NCBI GenBank assembly: GCA_019636445.1 | Contig: JAHBXO010000001.1 | Coordinates: 124,001-188,000 of the forward strand | DNA length: 64,000 bases | Direction of reading: 5' to 3' | From: Gemmataceae bacterium | GTDB taxonomy: Bacteria > Planctomycetota > Planctomycetia > Gemmatales > Gemmataceae | Shown here: in pieces, positions 8,107-45,150 of the stretch | Numbering within the stretch: position 1 is the stretch's first letter | Layout: the number at the start of each line of letters is the position of its first letter | Made by a program: the position numbers and the translations under genes | Notes under the pieces: generated by a model | Seen by the model: only the letters and a program-made list of their open reading frames with translations | Told to the model about the DNA's origin: nothing | Databases searched by the model: none

Positions 8107-8256
8107 CCCGGCGGACTCTCCTCGGCGCGGACAAGACCATCACCTTAGGACCGGTTGGTCCGGGTCGCAAGTTCCGCCCCGTCCGGGTCGCGATCCGCTC
8201 ACGGGGCTTTCATTTCTTCGCCCGCCCTCCGGGAAAAAGAAATCAGCGATTCGCGT

Positions 8257-8284
8257 TTGACATTGTGGAATGGAATCTTATTCA
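8257..8284 (+). promoter_or_regulatory. Candidate sigma-70-type promoter before the phage head module
   Basis: A consensus TTGACA (8257-8262) is followed after 16 bases by TATTCA (8279-8284), which is a poor -10 box. The surrounding 60 bases are much more AT-rich than the genes, as expected for a promoter region. It would drive the small gene at 8366 and possibly the portal gene. The call rests on the -35 match and context only. Confidence 0.3.
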
Positions 8285-8365
8285 CTACTGTTCAAAATAA
8301 CACATACGCACCGCGGAAGCGCGACGACTGTCCCCGTCCGGCCGCCCGGACACGGAGGACGCCCG

Positions 8366-8614
8366 ATGGCCGTCCCGCGCAAACCTCACGGCATCGGCGA
8401 CCGCCACGTCGGCAGCGACTTCGCCGCCGACGAGATCGAGTTCCTTCGGGCGATGGAGCACTTCAAACGCTCGCGCCCGTTCCCGACCTGGACCGAGGTG
8501 CTGAAAGTCCTGAAGGGCCTGGGCTACCGCAAGGTCGACGCGTCGGTCGGCGAGGCCCCGGGTGGGGGCGATGGGGCTGCGGGAAACGGAACCGCGCTCC
8601 TCCCCCCACCCTAA
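8366..8614 (+). CDS. Small protein at the head of the phage-like module
   Basis: 82 residues, starting [19 protein letters not shown] after a GGAGGA site. Residues 1-57 look like a genuine helical domain ([32 protein letters not shown], with a Trp-containing putative winged-helix turn). The last 25 residues are low complexity ([14 protein letters not shown]) and run into a palindromic GC-rich repeat, so the original C-terminus may have been altered by repeat insertion. Its place before the portal gene suggests a small phage-derived regulator or terminase-small-like remnant, but no family was recognised. Confidence 0.55.
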
Positions 8615-8625
8615 TCGCTCAATCT

Positions 8626-8648
8626 CCCTCCCCCTCGAAGGGGGAGGG
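8626..8648. repeat. GC-rich palindrome between the small gene and the portal gene
   Basis: A 9-bp perfect stem (CCCTCCCCC, 8626-8634, with 8640-8648) and a 5-base loop lies 12 bases after the stop codon. There is no T-run on either side, so it is better called an interspersed palindrome than a terminator. Confidence 0.55.
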
Positions 8649-8676
8649 GACAAGAGTCTATTTCCGGAGTCGTACC

Positions 8677-9888
8677 ATGTCGATCGTCCGCCGAATCGCC
8701 GAGGCCGTGAAGGCGCTGCGGGGCGCGCCGGAGAAGCCGGCCCCGCCGAAGATCGCGTCGCTGCTGGCACAGCCGTTCGCCCCGGCGGCGGGGTGGTGGC
8801 GTGACGACCCGACGGAACAACTGCGCAACTATCAATCGTGGGTCTACGCGGCGGTGAACGCCATCGCGCAGGAGGTGGCGAAGCAGCGGCCGCACCTGTT
8901 CCTCAACACCGGCCCGGCCGAGCACGAGCAAGCCGCCCTGCCGCACACGCATCCCCTCGCGCGCCTTCTCGACAACCCGAACCCGTGGCTGACGGCGTGG
9001 GAGCTGTGGTACCTGACGGTGGCGTACCTGGAGCTGACGGGCAACTGTTTCTGGTACGTCGCCCCGCTGGCGCACGCGAACGCGCCGGGCGAGATCTGGG
9101 TGGTGCCGACGCCGTGGGTGACGGTGGTGCCCGACGCGACGCGCTACGTGAAGGAGTACCGCGTGGCCGCCCCGAACGCGCGGGCGGAATCGTTCGACCC
9201 CGCCGAGATCATTCATCTCAAGTATCCGAATCCGCTCGATCCGCACTGGGGCCTCTCGCCGTTGCAGGCGAACGCGCTCACCGTGGACGCGAACGTCGAG
9301 CTGCTCAAGTCGCGCCGGCAGACGTTCCTCGCCGGCCCGCGCCCCGGCGTGGTGCTCCGCACCGACCAGACGCTGACCGACCAGACCGTGCGGCGGCTGG
9401 AGGAGAAGCTGCAGGCGAAGTTCGGCGGGCGCGAGCACTGGCACCGGCCGCTGGTGCTGGAGCAGGGGCTGACGGCGTCGCCGTGGACGCTGACGCCGGC
9501 GGAAATGGACTTCCTCAACTCCTCGAAGATGACGCGCGACGAGATCTTCGCGCTCTTCCGCGTGCCGCCGCCGATCGTGGGCCTCGTCGAGAACGCCGGT
9601 CTCGGCGGCGAAATCTGGCACGGTGCCCGCGCCATGTTCTGCGAGGGGACCGTGCAGCCGAAGCTGGACCTGCTGGCGCAGGCGCTGACGCGGGACCTGG
9701 GCCGGCGCTACGGGCCGGACGTGGCGATCGCGTTCCCGGACTGTTCGCCGCGCGTCCAGGAGCAGCGCCGCACCGACGACGAGTTGGACGCGAAGCTCGG
9801 CCTGCGGACTTACAACGAGATCCGCCGCGCGCGGGGATTGAAGCCGTTCGCGGACCCGCGTTTCGACGAGCCGATTCTGCCGCGGTGA
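8677..9888 (+). CDS. Phage portal protein, HK97/GTA family
   Basis: 403 residues, starting MSIVRRIAEAVKALRGAPEK; an upstream extension in the same frame lacks coding character. Portal proteins form the dodecameric ring through which DNA enters the capsid. Family-typical points are NYQSWVYAAVNAIAQEVAK near residue 50, HPLARLLDNPNPWLTAWEL near residue 95, the LELTGNCFWYV strand, DEIFALFRVPPPIVGLVENAG near residue 290, and the C-terminal EIRRARGLKPF. The length matches the family norm (about 400). It is followed by protease and capsid genes, the standard head order, but no terminase gene is visible upstream. Confidence 0.9.
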   Translation: MSIVRRIAEAVKALRGAPEKPAPPKIASLLAQPFAPAAGWWRDDPTEQLRNYQSWVYAAVNAIAQEVAKQRPHLFLNTGPAEHEQAALPHTHPLARLLDNPNPWLTAWELWYLTVAYLELTGNCFWYVAPLAHANAPGEIWVVPTPWVTVVPDATRYVKEYRVAAPNARAESFDPAEIIHLKYPNPLDPHWGLSPLQANALTVDANVELLKSRRQTFLAGPRPGVVLRTDQTLTDQTVRRLEEKLQAKFGGREHWHRPLVLEQGLTASPWTLTPAEMDFLNSSKMTRDEIFALFRVPPPIVGLVENAGLGGEIWHGARAMFCEGTVQPKLDLLAQALTRDLGRRYGPDVAIAFPDCSPRVQEQRRTDDELDAKLGLRTYNEIRRARGLKPFADPRFDEPILPR

Positions 9889-9925
9889 GGCGGGGTGCTG
9901 CGCTCAATGGAGCATCCCGCGATCC

Positions 9926-10008
9926 CCGCGCCCGGCTCCGAAGACCCGTTTGGGCCGTGGGAAGCTCCGCTGACAGGCCCAAACACTCGACAGCACTCGC
10001 GGCTAAAC
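9926..10008 (+). repeat. Long-form composite repeat with a central 9-bp hairpin
   Basis: Two outer pieces (9926-9945, ending GGCTCCGAAGAC; 9996-10008, CTCGCGGCTAAAC) match the two halves of the 38-nt repeat found at 42211, 45058 and, inverted, 44959. Between them is a hairpin with stem 9948-9956 (GTTTGGGCC) and 9976-9984, and a 19-nt loop. Read on the minus strand, this loop matches the loop of the hairpin inside hom at 40643-40679 at 18 of 19 positions. The element fills most of the gap between portal and protease genes. Confidence 0.75.
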
Positions 10009-10051
10009 GATTTCTGATTCCTGACCTCCGACCCCTGACTCCTGGTGCCCC

Positions 10052-10738
10052 ATGAACGAGACCATCCGCGCCGATCCGGCGACGATCCGCCAACTGCCGA
10101 ACGGAACGTTCGGTCGCGTCAACCCCGCGAACGAGACCCTGACGGTGGACGGTGGGGCGATGCTCGTGCGCAGCGTCATCACGACGATCGACCCGGACCG
10201 CTCCGGGGACGTGGTGGTGCCGGCGGGGCTGAAGAACGCGGAGGAGTACCTGCTGAACCCGGTGGTGCTGTGGGCGCACAACCGGGCGCAGTTCCCGCCG
10301 ATCGGGACCTGCGCGTGGCTGGACGTGCAGCCGCGGCGCGTCGTGGCCGAGACGCGCTTCGCGAAGAAGGTGCAGTTCGCGGAGGACGTGTTCCGGCTGT
10401 ACGAGCAGCGGGTGCTGCGGGCGTGGTCGATCGGGTTCGTGCCGCGGAAGGCGTACCGGGTGCCGTCGTCGCACCACGCGGTGCCGGGGCACTATCCGGC
10501 CGACCGCTTCGCGCTGCGGGTGGACGAGTGGGATCTGATGGAGTACTCGGCGGTGCCGATTCCGGAGAACCCCGGCGCGCTGACGGTGGCGCTGCAGAAG
10601 GGCCTGGTGCGCGACCCGACGCTGCGCGACTGGCTCTGGCAAATCCCCGACGACCGCGGCGGCCGGCTGCACCGCGTGGACGCGCTGGCTCCGCTGGTGC
10701 GGCCTGTCGAACGTGACGACACGCGGCATTCGGAGTGA
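10052..10738 (+). CDS. HK97-family prohead protease
   Basis: 228 residues. This family cleaves the scaffold part of the capsid protein during head maturation. The catalytic pair typical of the U35/S78 proteases is visible: His76 in VVLWAHN and Ser126 in RAWSIGF. The N-terminal strand VRSVITTIDPDRSGDVVVPAGL is also characteristic. The length is a little above the usual 170-200, with a Pro/Arg-rich tail after residue 200. It lies 163 bases after the portal gene, with a repeat between, rather than tightly packed as in an active phage. Confidence 0.88.
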   Translation: MNETIRADPATIRQLPNGTFGRVNPANETLTVDGGAMLVRSVITTIDPDRSGDVVVPAGLKNAEEYLLNPVVLWAHNRAQFPPIGTCAWLDVQPRRVVAETRFAKKVQFAEDVFRLYEQRVLRAWSIGFVPRKAYRVPSSHHAVPGHYPADRFALRVDEWDLMEYSAVPIPENPGALTVALQKGLVRDPTLRDWLWQIPDDRGGRLHRVDALAPLVRPVERDDTRHSE

Positions 10739-10771
10739 GCCGGGTTTTGCGTCCCGGAGGGACGCCGGACT

Positions 10772-11045
10772 GTAGCCACGGGTGGAGCGAAGCGGAACCC
10801 GTGGTCGGTCGGAGTTTAAATTCTGCCCCGGAGGGGCAGCGGAACGATGACGGTTCCGTCGCCCCTCCGGGGCGAGTGTGGGTGATGCCGCTTTCCACGG
10901 GTTCCGCTTCACTCCACCCGTGGTCGGTCGGAGTTTGAATTCTGCCCCGGAGGGGCAGCGGGACGAAGGAGGTCCCTTCGCCCCTCCGGGGCGAGCTTTC
11001 CGTCCGTCGCATCCACGGGTTCCGCTGCGCTTCACCCGTGGCTAC
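10772..11045. repeat. Large palindromic repeat, family B, copy 1
   Basis: The left end GTAGCCACGGGTGGAGCG (10772-10789) is matched in inverse orientation at 11028-11045. Inside are repeats of CCACGGGTTCCGCTTCACTC-type hairpins and paired GCCCCGGAGGGGC hairpins, arranged as two tandem half-units of about 130 bases. The same family at 61420-61579 keeps the ends but has a different middle. Confidence 0.75.
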
Positions 11046-11090
11046 AGCCCGCGGCCCCATCCGGGGCCGAAGACGAGAACCAAAAACCTC

Positions 11091-11141
11091 TGAACCCTGA
11101 TTCCCGAACCCTGATTCCTGAACCCTGATTCCTGAACCCTG
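11091..11141. repeat. Short tandem repeat (TGA-CCCTGATTCC type)
   Basis: Four imperfect direct copies of a roughly 15-base unit (variants of CTGAACCCTGATTC) precede the capsid gene. A weaker relative (CTGATTCCTGACCTCCGACC) sits before the protease gene at about 10014. There is no CRISPR-like alternation of repeat and unique spacer. Confidence 0.6.
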
Positions 11142-11159
11142 TTTTCAAGGAGATTTCCC

Positions 11160-12527
11160 ATGTCGATTCACACCGCGGACCCGTTCCAGACGCGCGAGGA
11201 ACTCGTGACGTTCATCGAGCAGCAGGCGGGCACTGCTGTTGAGAAGGCACTGCCGGCGCGCGTGGAACGGCGCGTGCCGTGGGCCACGTCCGGCCCGGTC
11301 GGCCGCGACTCGGCCGGCTACTCGATGCTCAAGGCGGCGGCGTACGCGCTCGGATTCGTCGGCCCCGAACAGGCCAAGGAGGAGATCCACGCGCACCACC
11401 AACTGCGCGACCTGTACGCGAGCTACGGGTTCCTGCCGCACCACGGGCAGCAGTCGTTCCTGGTGCCGTTGGCGTCGGCGCACCTGCCGGCATACGAACC
11501 GCAAGGCCGCAAGCTCCGCGACGAGCTGCGCCAGAAGATGTCGGCGCAGGCGGACCGGTTCGACCCGGACGAGGCCGACTGGATCGGCCGGAAGCTGCGG
11601 CGCAAGGCGCTCGGCCTGGTGGCGGAGGAAGGGGCGGAGCTGGTGCCGAACGCGATGCTCGGCGAGCTGATCGAGCTGCAGCGCAGCCTGGAGGTGTTCG
11701 CGTCGGCCGGGGCGCGCGAGATCGCGCTGCCGCCGAACGGGCGCGTGTCGTTCCCCAAACTCGCGTCGGCGTCGCTGGCGTACTGGGTCGGCGAAGGGGC
11801 GTCCATCACGGAGAGCCAGCCGAGCACGGGCAACCTCGAACTGACGGCGAAGAAGCTCGGCGTGTTCGTGAAGCTGAACAACGAGCTGCTGCGGTTCGCG
11901 TCGCCGTCGGCGGAGGGGCTGGTGCGGTTCGACATGGCGCGGGCCGCGGCGTTGAAGGCGGACCTGGCGATGCTCGAAGGCAGCGGCAGCACGCAGATCA
12001 AGGGGATCACCACCTACTCCGGCATCACGACGCACGTGGCCGGTACGACGGGCGCGAACGGCGACACGTTCACACCGGCCGACGTGGCCGCGATGGAGGC
12101 GCTGCTGCCCGACGCGGTCGAAGCGCCGACGGCGTGGGTGATGCGCAAGGCGATGTTCGCCGCGCTCGTCAACCGGCGCGCCGACGCCGTCAGCGCCGCC
12201 GACGGCAAGGGGCCGTTCCTCTTCCGCGACACGCGATCCCTCGGCGCCGACCGGCCCTCGGAACTGTTCGGCACGAAGGTCGTGCGCTCCGCCCAGGTCG
12301 CCGCGAACCGCACCAAAGGCAGCGCGTCGAATCTGACGTACATCCTGCTCGGGCATTTCCCGGACTGGATCATCGCACGGCTCGGCGTCATGGAGTTCCT
12401 CGCCTCCGGCCACGGCGACACCGCCATCCAGAACGACCAGACGTTCCTCCGCGGCATCCAGCACATCGACGCGGGACCGCGCCACGAGGCGAGCTTCGTC
12501 TTCTGCGACGACCTCGTGATCGCGTGA
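11160..12527 (+). CDS. Major capsid protein, HK97 fold
   Basis: 455 residues, preceded by AAGGAG at good spacing. Residues 1-170 are charged and helical, fitting a scaffold (delta) domain removed by the protease. After about residue 175 comes the HK97 core: LVPNAMLGELIELQRSLEVFASAGAREIALP, then SLAYWVGEGASITESQPSTGNLELTAKKLGVFVKLNNELLRFASP, the hallmark of the family. The C-terminal part (SASNLTYILLGHFPDWIIARLGVMEFLASGH... GPRHEASFVFCDDLVIA) is also typical. The gene appears intact with no frameshift. Confidence 0.92.
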   Translation: MSIHTADPFQTREELVTFIEQQAGTAVEKALPARVERRVPWATSGPVGRDSAGYSMLKAAAYALGFVGPEQAKEEIHAHHQLRDLYASYGFLPHHGQQSFLVPLASAHLPAYEPQGRKLRDELRQKMSAQADRFDPDEADWIGRKLRRKALGLVAEEGAELVPNAMLGELIELQRSLEVFASAGAREIALPPNGRVSFPKLASASLAYWVGEGASITESQPSTGNLELTAKKLGVFVKLNNELLRFASPSAEGLVRFDMARAAALKADLAMLEGSGSTQIKGITTYSGITTHVAGTTGANGDTFTPADVAAMEALLPDAVEAPTAWVMRKAMFAALVNRRADAVSAADGKGPFLFRDTRSLGADRPSELFGTKVVRSAQVAANRTKGSASNLTYILLGHFPDWIIARLGVMEFLASGHGDTAIQNDQTFLRGIQHIDAGPRHEASFVFCDDLVIA

Positions 12528-39474: not shown

Positions 39475-40824
39475 ATGGCGGAATCGCTAGGGATAGCGCT
39501 CGTCGGCTGCGGGACCGTCGGTACCGGGGTCGCCCGAATTCTCACCGAACACGCCGGCCGCATGACCGCCCGCGCTGGGGGCCGATCCCTCGTCCTCCGC
39601 CATCTCGTCGTGCGCGACCGCGCGAAGCCGCGGGACGTTGTCGTTCCCGGCGCGACGGTTGGCACCGACTGGCGCGCCGCCGTCGCCGACCCGGCCGTGC
39701 ACATCGTCGTCGAACTGATCGGTGGAACCACGGTCGCTAAGCAGGTCGTCCTTGCGGCGCTCGCGGCGGGCAAGCACGTCGTCACCGCGAACAAGGCGCT
39801 GCTGGCCGCGCACGGCTTCGAGCTGTTCGAGGCCGCCCGCCAGGCCGAGCGCGTTGTCTGCTTCGAGGCCGCCGTCGCCGGGGGCATCCCGATCATTCGC
39901 GCCCTCGGGGAGAGCCTTGCGGCGAACCAGATCACCGGCATCCAGGGCATCCTCAACGGCACGTCGAACTTCATCCTCAGCGCCATGGCGGAGAGTGGCA
40001 CGAGCTACGCCGACGCGCTCAAGGAAGCCCAGCGCCTCGGCTACGCGGAGGCCGACCCGACGCTCGACGTCGACGGCTCCGACGCGGCGCACAAGCTCGC
40101 CGTGCTGGCGCAGATCGCCTTCGGCGTCACGGCGCAACCCGGCGACATCGAGAAGCAAGGCATCGCCGGCATCGACGCGATGGACACGCGCTTCGCCGCC
40201 GAACTGGGCTACACGATCAAGCTGCTGGCGGAGGCGTGGGTGGCGGACAAGACGGTGGCGCTGCACGTGGCGCCGGTGCTCCTGCGCCGCACCGATCCGC
40301 TGGCGCAGGTGCGCGGGGCGTACAACGCGGTGCTCGTGACCGGCGACGTGGTGGGCGAGACGCTGTTCCAGGGGGCGGGCGCGGGGATGATGCCGACGGC
40401 GTCGTCGGTGGTGGCGGACATCCTGGACATCGCGGTGGGCCGGGCGCAGAAGACGTTCGCGGCGGCGAAGCTGTGGAGCGGGAAGACGGAGTTCGCGCTG
40501 GCGCCGTCGGACAAGGTGCGTTCGCGGTTCTATCTGCGGGCGCTGGTGCGGGACGAGCCGGGGGTGCTGGCGGACGTGTGCCGGTGCCTGGCGAACGAGC
40601 GGATCAGCATCGCGTCGATCATCCAGCACGAAGCAGTCGAGAGTCCGGCCCTGTCAGCGGAGCTTCCCGCGGGCCGGACGGGCGAAGGCCAACCGATCTT
40701 GATGGTGCCGCTGGTGATCATGACGCACGTGGCCGAGACCGGCCGCTTCCGCGCCGCCGCGAAGGCGCTCGCGAAGCTCCCCGGCGTGTGCGGCCCGGCG
40801 GTGTTCTTCTCGGTGGACGACTGA
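39475..40824 (+). CDS. hom: Homoserine dehydrogenase
   Basis: 449 residues. Reduces aspartate semialdehyde to homoserine on the way to threonine and methionine. NAD(P) site VGCGTVGTGVA near the start, catalytic region KHVVTANKALLAAHG, GILNGTSNFILS, and GYAEADPTLDVDGSDAAHKLAVLAQIAFG. A C-terminal ACT domain (LRALVRDEPGVLADVCRCLANERISIASIIQHEAVE) gives allosteric control, usually by threonine. Between that and PLVIMTHVAETG is an extra segment (SPALSAELPAGRTGEGQPIL) encoded partly by a palindromic element, not seen in typical family members. Confidence 0.92.
   Translation: MAESLGIALVGCGTVGTGVARILTEHAGRMTARAGGRSLVLRHLVVRDRAKPRDVVVPGATVGTDWRAAVADPAVHIVVELIGGTTVAKQVVLAALAAGKHVVTANKALLAAHGFELFEAARQAERVVCFEAAVAGGIPIIRALGESLAANQITGIQGILNGTSNFILSAMAESGTSYADALKEAQRLGYAEADPTLDVDGSDAAHKLAVLAQIAFGVTAQPGDIEKQGIAGIDAMDTRFAAELGYTIKLLAEAWVADKTVALHVAPVLLRRTDPLAQVRGAYNAVLVTGDVVGETLFQGAGAGMMPTASSVVADILDIAVGRAQKTFAAAKLWSGKTEFALAPSDKVRSRFYLRALVRDEPGVLADVCRCLANERISIASIIQHEAVESPALSAELPAGRTGEGQPILMVPLVIMTHVAETGRFRAAAKALAKLPGVCGPAVFFSVDD
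40643..40679 (+). repeat. Coding palindromic hairpin element inside hom
   Basis: Stem 40643-40651 (GTCCGGCCC) pairs exactly with 40671-40679; the loop is TGTCAGCGGAGCTTCCCGC. The loop is nearly identical to that of the portal-protease intergenic copy (minus strand of 9948-9984), while three stem base pairs differ and are compensated. It is read in frame as part of the hom ACT domain. Confidence 0.75.
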
Positions 40825-42210: not shown

Positions 42211-42248
42211 CCGCGCTCGGCTCCGAAGACTCCGCCTCGCGGCTAAAC
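42211..42248 (+). repeat. 38-nt interspersed repeat, family A, short form
   Basis: Begins CCGCGCTCGGCTCCGAAGAC and ends CTCGCGGCTAAAC. Identical over 38 bases to 45058-45095 and, inverted with one mismatch, to 44959-44996. It lies in the leader region of the helicase gene. Confidence 0.85.
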
Positions 42249-44956: not shown

Positions 44957-44958
44957 CC

Positions 44959-45095
44959 GTTTAGCCGCGAGGCGCAGTCTTCGGAGCCGAGCGCGGCGGC
45001 TGCAACAAGTCATACAGAAGCGCGGATCACGATTTCGACCGAAGTGTTGCATCCGCTCCGCGCTCGGCTCCGAAGACTCCGCCTCGCGGCTAAAC
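44959..45095. repeat. Inverted pair of family A repeats (137-base palindrome)
   Basis: The 38-nt family A element occurs inverted at 44959-44996 (one mismatch) and direct at 45058-45095. Between them a smaller TGCAACA/TGTTGCA inverted pair continues the symmetry. The unit starts two bases after the methyltransferase stop. Confidence 0.8.
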
Positions 45096-45150
45096 GAAAC
45101 CTTTCTGATCGACATCGGGTATCCTCTCCGCCACGTCCCGGAGTATTCCC

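What the first reader, a model, noticed from the sequence alone, without database searches (positions are those of the whole stretch)
9948..9984. Hairpin element with a conserved loop and compensating stem changes, in two unrelated loci
The portal-protease gap (read on the minus strand) and the hom gene at 40643-40679 each hold a 9-bp stem and a 19-nt loop. The loops agree at 18 of 19 positions (TGTCAGCGGAGCTTCCC is identical). The stems GTTTGGGCC and GTCCGGCCC differ at positions 3, 4 and 7, and in each copy the opposite arm has changed to match. Conserved loop plus covarying stem is a sign of selection on structure (RNA or single-strand DNA), not just copying. I know of no described element with this loop.
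Basis: seen in the sequence. Interest (0 to 1): 0.78.

Follow-up and report, generated by a model that had tools for sequence, protein, structure and literature searches.

The report
Mobile 45-base hairpin inside essential genes
A 45-base DNA hairpin with a fixed loop and freely changing (but always matching) stem has jumped around the genomes of two genera of planctomycete bacteria, landing in frame inside essential genes such as homoserine dehydrogenase and leucyl-tRNA synthetase; it is a new family of a rare kind of miniature selfish DNA.

Summary
The two hairpins belong to a dispersed family: 9 copies in this 5.9 Mb genome (Gemmataceae), 7 in a congener, 8-52 in each of six genomes of one other genus, none elsewhere in a 392-genome sample of the phylum. 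Alignment with empty orthologous sites shows a mobile insertion of exactly 45 bp (8-nt variable leader + 37-nt hairpin), put into a C^GG-like site without target duplication. Five species-specific in-frame insertions (carB, leuS, DUF1501 twice, a ferritin-like gene), the shared hom insertion and a tandem pair in an aminotransferase are 45 bp or 2x45; one in ftsK is 42 bp with three arm bases missing. Loops of independent insertions differ by 5%, arms by 41%, leaders by 72%, yet arms stay complementary. After insertion the loop can decay while the arms stay paired, so the loop is probably conserved by the mobilising machinery, not by host function. The window copy at 9948 sits in a separate REP element (three empty copies lie in the window); the other is in the ACT-domain region of hom. 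It works like Rickettsia palindromic elements and REPs but fails their defining tests. The enzyme is unknown; single-strand (HUH-type) transposition in trans is my best guess.

The parts
9948..9984 (-). Hairpin copy 1: 9-bp stem GTTTGGGCC/GGCCCAAAC, 19-nt loop TGTCAGCGGAGCTTCCCAC
   Evidence: Sequence; folds as DNA at -9.5 kcal/mol, z -2.7; CM hit 61.1 bits
9985..9992 (-). 8-nt leader (TGTCGAGT) completing the 45-bp unit 9948-9992
   Evidence: Length inferred from filled/empty comparisons of other copies and from three empty REPs in the window
9926..10009 (-). REP element (CGTTTAGCSGCGAG...TCTTCGGAGCCG..GCGCGG) interrupted by the 45-bp unit; orthologous filled copy in congener G053 (L149)
42211..42248 (-). 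Empty copy of the same REP
44958..44996 (+). Empty copy of the same REP; its ortholog in G053 (L151) carries the hairpin, 45 bp longer
45058..45096 (-). Empty copy of the same REP, facing the previous one (inverted pair)
40643..40679 (+). Hairpin copy 2: 9-bp stem GTCCGGCCC/GGGCCGGAC, 19-nt loop TGTCAGCGGAGCTTCCCGC
   Evidence: Sequence; folds as DNA at -14 kcal/mol, z -3.9; CM hit 63.3 bits
40635..40642 (+). 8-nt leader AGTCGAGA completing the 45-bp unit 40635-40679 (15 codons in frame)
   Evidence: Filled/empty alignment of hom
39475..40824 (+). hom (homoserine dehydrogenase); insert lies within the C-terminal ACT-domain region
   Evidence: Pfam Homoserine_dh 2e-63; ACT match ends at residue 388, profile position 37 of 66, just before the insert

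Best explanation
A non-autonomous mobile element of exactly 45 bp: an 8-nt leader of free sequence followed by a 37-nt hairpin (9-bp stem, 19-nt loop TGTCAGCGGAGCTTCYCRC). SHOWN: it inserts at new sites without target duplication, mostly between C and GG, in either orientation, into genes (adding 15 codons in frame) and inside or next to REP-type repeats. INFERRED: a host-encoded enzyme acting in trans recognises the extruded single-strand hairpin, reading the loop by sequence and the stem by structure only, and cuts at the foot of the hairpin and 8 nt before it; an HUH (Y1/RAYT-like) single-strand transposase fits best. Because only copies with an intact loop and a paired stem can move, successful lineages keep the loop and let the stem change in compensating steps. 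Once landed in a gene, a copy is translated and drifts.
For: Empty and filled orthologous sites: carB 197 vs 242 bp, leuS 221 vs 266, ferritin-like 212 vs 257, DUF1501 236 vs 281, hom 242 vs 287, aminotransferase 179 vs 269 = 2x45 with tandem period 45; second DUF1501, 45 bp; REP sites 45 bp. The filled sites in carB, leuS, ferritin-like and both DUF1501 genes separate this genome from its congener, and outgroups are empty, so these are insertions. Conserved loop, covarying arms (5%, 41%, 72% pairwise difference for loop, arm, leader). Leader and arm distances correlate between copies (Mantel r 0.40, P 0.011 in g1; 0.47, P 0.006 in g7), as expected if arms travel with the element. Both orientations and five reading frames are used. 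Loop decay but arm pairing in old glyS-leader copies.
Against: No transposase is linked: none of 30 Y1_Tnp loci searched has a copy within 1.5 kb, and genome G010 has 15 copies but no Y1_Tnp hit. No strand segregation of the 52 copies in G027 (24 plus, 28 minus; two-block test P 0.88), which lagging-strand transposition might have given, though most of these copies sit inside larger repeats. The correlation of leader and arm in g1 weakens to P 0.10 if two related copies are dropped. The same data fit a double-strand mechanism without target duplication.
Confidence: 0.7

Rival explanations
1. A structured RNA or cis-regulatory motif of the host, conserved for its function in transcripts.
For: Conserved loop and covarying stem. 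At the glyS leader the arms change in compensation between species (GAC/GTC, GGC/GCC, GGT/ACC).
Against: Copies lie in unrelated genes, in both orientations, inside coding sequence, and are absent from orthologs in the congener. At the glyS leader the site is empty in many genomes of the same genus and the loop is degraded in four of the seven filled ones. No Rfam family matches the window at gathering score.
Confidence: 0.07
2. Mobile element as above, but the perfect arms are kept by mutation (template-switch correction between the two arms of a quasi-palindrome) rather than by selection.
For: Stems are nearly all perfect in recent insertions; the arms at glyS stay paired even where the loop has decayed, which selection for mobility cannot explain.
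Against: Many copies in genus g7 do carry uncorrected mismatches, so correction is not efficient; it does not explain loop conservation.
Confidence: 0.3
3. The arms are made anew at each insertion from sequence at or near the target.
For: Arms and leader differ strongly between recent insertions while loops do not.
Against: Arms and leaders show no similarity to target flanks (16 permutation tests, no excess) or to the surrounding 3 kb; leader and arm distances correlate between copies; arms share a weak consensus NNNCGRNCC.
Confidence: 0.05
4. The element is mobilised by the RAYT of the surrounding GTTTAGC REP, as a passenger or variant of that REP.
For: All REP-borne copies in genus g1 share flanks like GAGTGC..GGGTCTTC and so may have spread as filled REPs. 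REP copies lie about 250-330 bp from Y1_Tnp genes on contigs C20 and C21.
Against: The coding-gene copies carry no REP sequence at all, so the 45-mer moves alone.
Confidence: 0.2

Closest known systems
Rickettsia palindromic elements (RPE; Ogata et al. 2000, 2002, as summarised in PMC10969869)
   Same: Short palindromic DNA inserted in frame in unrelated, conserved protein genes; selfish.
   Different: RPEs are about 150 bp and described there in Rickettsia. This is 45 bp, in planctomycetes, with a fixed loop and free stem. Direct sequence comparison with RPE families was not made.
REP / REPIN elements moved by RAYT transposases (PMC3733652)
   Same: Small hairpin, some copies inside genes, found in genomes with Y1 transposases.
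   Different: REPs are tagged by GTAG or CGTC at one end; here there is no tag (leader positions at most 0.42 bits), it is the loop that is conserved, and no linked RAYT was found.
MITEs of DDE transposons (general knowledge)
   Same: Miniature, non-autonomous, foldback.
   Different: No conserved terminal inverted repeat and no target-site duplication in the filled/empty comparisons.

Membership tests
Rickettsia palindromic element (RPE) | Palindromic element inserted in frame into protein-coding genes | tested here: met
   Filled/empty ortholog alignments for eight genes
Rickettsia palindromic element (RPE) | Length of about 150 bp | tested here: not met
   45 bp in all but one case
Rickettsia palindromic element (RPE) | Sequence membership of a known RPE family | not tested
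   RPE sequences were not compared; the element was found only in two Gemmataceae genera among planctomycetes
REP (RAYT-associated) | GTAG or CGTC tag at one end of the hairpin | tested here: not met
   Leader and flanks carry no conserved tetranucleotide
REP (RAYT-associated) | Cognate RAYT gene flanked by copies | tested here: not met
   30 Y1_Tnp loci without a copy within 1.5 kb; G010 without any Y1_Tnp hit
REP (RAYT-associated) | Moved by an HUH tyrosine transposase through single-strand DNA | not testable with these tools
   Needs a transposition assay
MITE | Target-site duplication on insertion | tested here: not met
   Empty versus filled sites differ by 45 bp with no flanking duplication of fixed length
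Rfam structured RNA | Match at gathering score | tested here: not met
   0 matches in the window; nothing on the element at E up to 1 in L002 and L029
Intrinsic terminator | T-run directly after the hairpin | tested here: not met
   3' flanks are mostly GG-rich (GGGTCTTC, GGGCGAAG and others)

The most novel reading that the evidence does not exclude
A minimal mobile element with no ends of its own: 45 bases recognised only by a 19-nt loop sequence and by the shape (not the sequence) of its stem, moved as single-stranded DNA by an enzyme acting in trans, and of a length (15 codons) that makes nearly every insertion into a gene an in-frame peptide insertion.
Probability: 0.4. Interest if true: 0.75.

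Novelty: new variant of a known kind. Interest (0 to 1): 0.62.

Why it matters
In-frame selfish palindromes in essential genes are best known from Rickettsia. A second, distinct family in planctomycetes, with recent insertions, intact empty sites in a close relative and a built-in covariation signal, makes two open questions testable: how such elements move without a transposase gene of their own, and how proteins tolerate repeated 15-residue insertions. It is also a caution: loop conservation plus stem covariation, usually read as a sign of a functional RNA, can come from the mobility of a selfish element.

Tried and rejected
Arms copied from the target: rejected. Insertion into pre-existing palindromes as a rule: not seen at coding sites, although many g7 copies sit at the middle of C-rich/G-rich foldbacks. 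Two-ended master transposon: inverted copy pairs 1.5-4 kb apart in G027 were fetched; Pfam found no transposase in the long frames between them. Link to Y1_Tnp genes: none. Strand bias: none in G027. Strand that folds, judged by G-T versus A-C mismatches: inconclusive (T-G at pair 1 in 8 copies favours the TGTCAGCGG strand; elsewhere A-C types are commoner). Viral collection: 0 matches. L006 sits in an open frame with a ribosomal L3 match, but probably upstream of the gene; not counted as coding.

Full report
OBSERVATION. The 17-mer TGTCAGCGGAGCTTCCC occurs exactly six times in the 5.9 Mb genome and its reversed control never; all six copies, and the near-exact ones, have 7-9 bp complementary arms of differing sequence. 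An alignment of 12 copies gives 98.1% paired cells and a covariation score of 0.815 against 0.211 in shuffles and at most 0.202 for slid partners; a covariance model was built from it.

DISTRIBUTION. The model finds copies only in two genera of the family: 8 in this genome, 7 in congener G053, 1-52 in members of genus g7, and none in the other genomes of a 392-genome sample of the phylum. The viral collection holds none. One more variant copy (L012, 18-nt loop) lies between the two domains of a YhcG-type nuclease gene of this genome.

WHAT IT IS. Several copies lie in frame inside conserved genes: hom, carB, leuS, two DUF1501 genes, a ferritin-like gene (my name; no Pfam match), an RHS-type gene, an aminotransferase (two in tandem), ftsK. 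Aligned with orthologs, the insert is exactly 45 bp: hom 242 to 287, carB 197 to 242, leuS 221 to 266, ferritin-like 212 to 257, DUF1501 236 to 281, aminotransferase 179 to 269 = 2x45 with tandem period 45, second DUF1501 45 bp. ftsK has 42 bp, with three bases missing from the 3' arm. carB, leuS, the ferritin-like gene and both DUF1501 genes are filled in only one of the two congeners and empty in outgroups, so these are recent insertions. The unit is 8 nt of variable leader plus the 37-nt hairpin. For example carB on the element strand is GATCCC^GGT when empty, with CAGAAGTT-GGGTTGTCC-loop-GGACAACCC between when filled. The base before the insert is C in 10 of 16 copies, and the first and second bases after it are each G in 10 of 16. 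No target duplication is needed.

THE TWO WINDOW COPIES. The copy at 9948 lies in the gap after the phage portal gene and before a phage capsid gene (Pfam; the gene in between has no Pfam match), inside an 84-bp REP-type repeat. Three empty copies of that REP are in the window (42211-42248, 44958-44996, 45058-45096) and 37 matches to its first 14 bases are in the genome. The same copy is present at the orthologous place in G053 (92% identity over 1.48 kb). One of the window's empty REPs (45.0 kb) is filled in G053, 45 bp longer. All REP-borne copies in this genus share similar flanks (GAGTGC..GGGTCTTC), which differ from those of empty REPs, so they may have spread as filled REPs or by conversion. 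The copy at 40635-40679 adds 15 codons to hom just after the part of the ACT domain that Pfam matches; it is shared with G053.

SEQUENCE RULES. Among independent insertions, loops differ at 5% of positions, 5' arms at 41%, leaders at 72%. Arms share a weak consensus NNNCGRNCC. Arms and leaders bear no relation to target flanks or to nearby DNA. Leader and arm distances correlate between copies, so arms are inherited with the element rather than made at the target. In orthologous pairs the arms do not evolve faster than the loop: hom, loop 1 of 19, arms 0 of 18, leader 1 of 8; portal-gap copy, loop 1 of 19, arms 0 of 18. At an old insertion upstream of glyS in genus g7, seven genomes are filled and the others empty; arms read GACCGGGCC, GGCCGGGCC or GGTCGGGCC with matching partners, while the loop has decayed in four of the seven. 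Loop conservation is thus probably a property of copies that move, not of copies that sit; why the arms stay paired in sitting copies is not explained by mobility and may reflect mutational correction between arms.

MECHANISM. Fixed length, no target duplication, a preferred C^GG junction, a hairpin read by loop sequence and stem shape, and no coding capacity point to mobilisation in trans of a single-strand hairpin, as HUH (Y1) transposases do (established knowledge of the IS200/IS605 and RAYT families; inference here). Against: no Y1_Tnp gene is flanked by copies, G010 has copies but no Y1_Tnp hit, and no strand segregation is seen in G027. I hold the mobile-element reading with high confidence and the HUH step at about 0.4.

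UNBIASED CHECK. Over about 365 kb aligned between the two congeners, indels of 18-130 bp include two 45-bp events made by this element, and several other foldback insertions of other families (66, 75 and 81 bp with stems of 31-33 bp). Such genomes are rich in small palindromes; this family stands out by its fixed 45 bp, fixed loop and free stem.

KNOWN OR NEW. No paper found in the held library describes it (searches; text checks). It works like Rickettsia palindromic elements and resembles REPs but fails their defining tests; I call it a new variant of a known kind.

Noticed in passing
L029:2383-2471 (carB of G053): A second, different palindrome (repeats of GGAATGC / GCATTCC, read as MRNAECGMRNEIP...IPNSAFRIPN) also sits in frame in the same carB gene that carries the hairpin; it gave sub-threshold Rfam miRNA hits on both strands.
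   Followed up: no
G000:C1:182725 and 67956; G053:C6 site opposite G000:C1:54263: Species-specific insertions of 75, 81 and 66 bp that are almost perfect inverted repeats (stems 31-33 bp), two sharing the sequence CGACTTCCGAAGTC: other foldback families in the same genomes.
   Followed up: partly
window 42211-42248, 44958-44996, 45058-45096, 9926-10009: REP family CGTTTAGCSGCGAGGCGSAGTCTTCGGAGCCGAGCGCGG, including an inverted pair (REPIN-like); copies lie about 250-330 bp from Y1_Tnp genes on contigs C20 and C21.
   Followed up: partly
window 8155-12527: Phage portal and capsid genes with the hairpin-bearing REP in the gap after the portal gene; the same arrangement is in the congener around that gap.
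   Followed up: partly
L297, L302, L303, L306, L307, L308, L314: Hairpin about 20 nt upstream of the glyS start in seven genomes of genus g7 (G009-G012, G014, G017, G018), on the strand opposite the element; the kept pairing may have been taken up for regulation.
   Followed up: partly
G027:C1:3966099-3966181 (L057, L124): Two head-to-tail 45-bp units inside an aminotransferase gene, adding 30 codons.
   Followed up: yes
G027:C1 4.2-5.7 Mb: Nearly half of the 52 copies of genome G027 lie in this 1.5 Mb of a 9.8 Mb chromosome.
   Followed up: no
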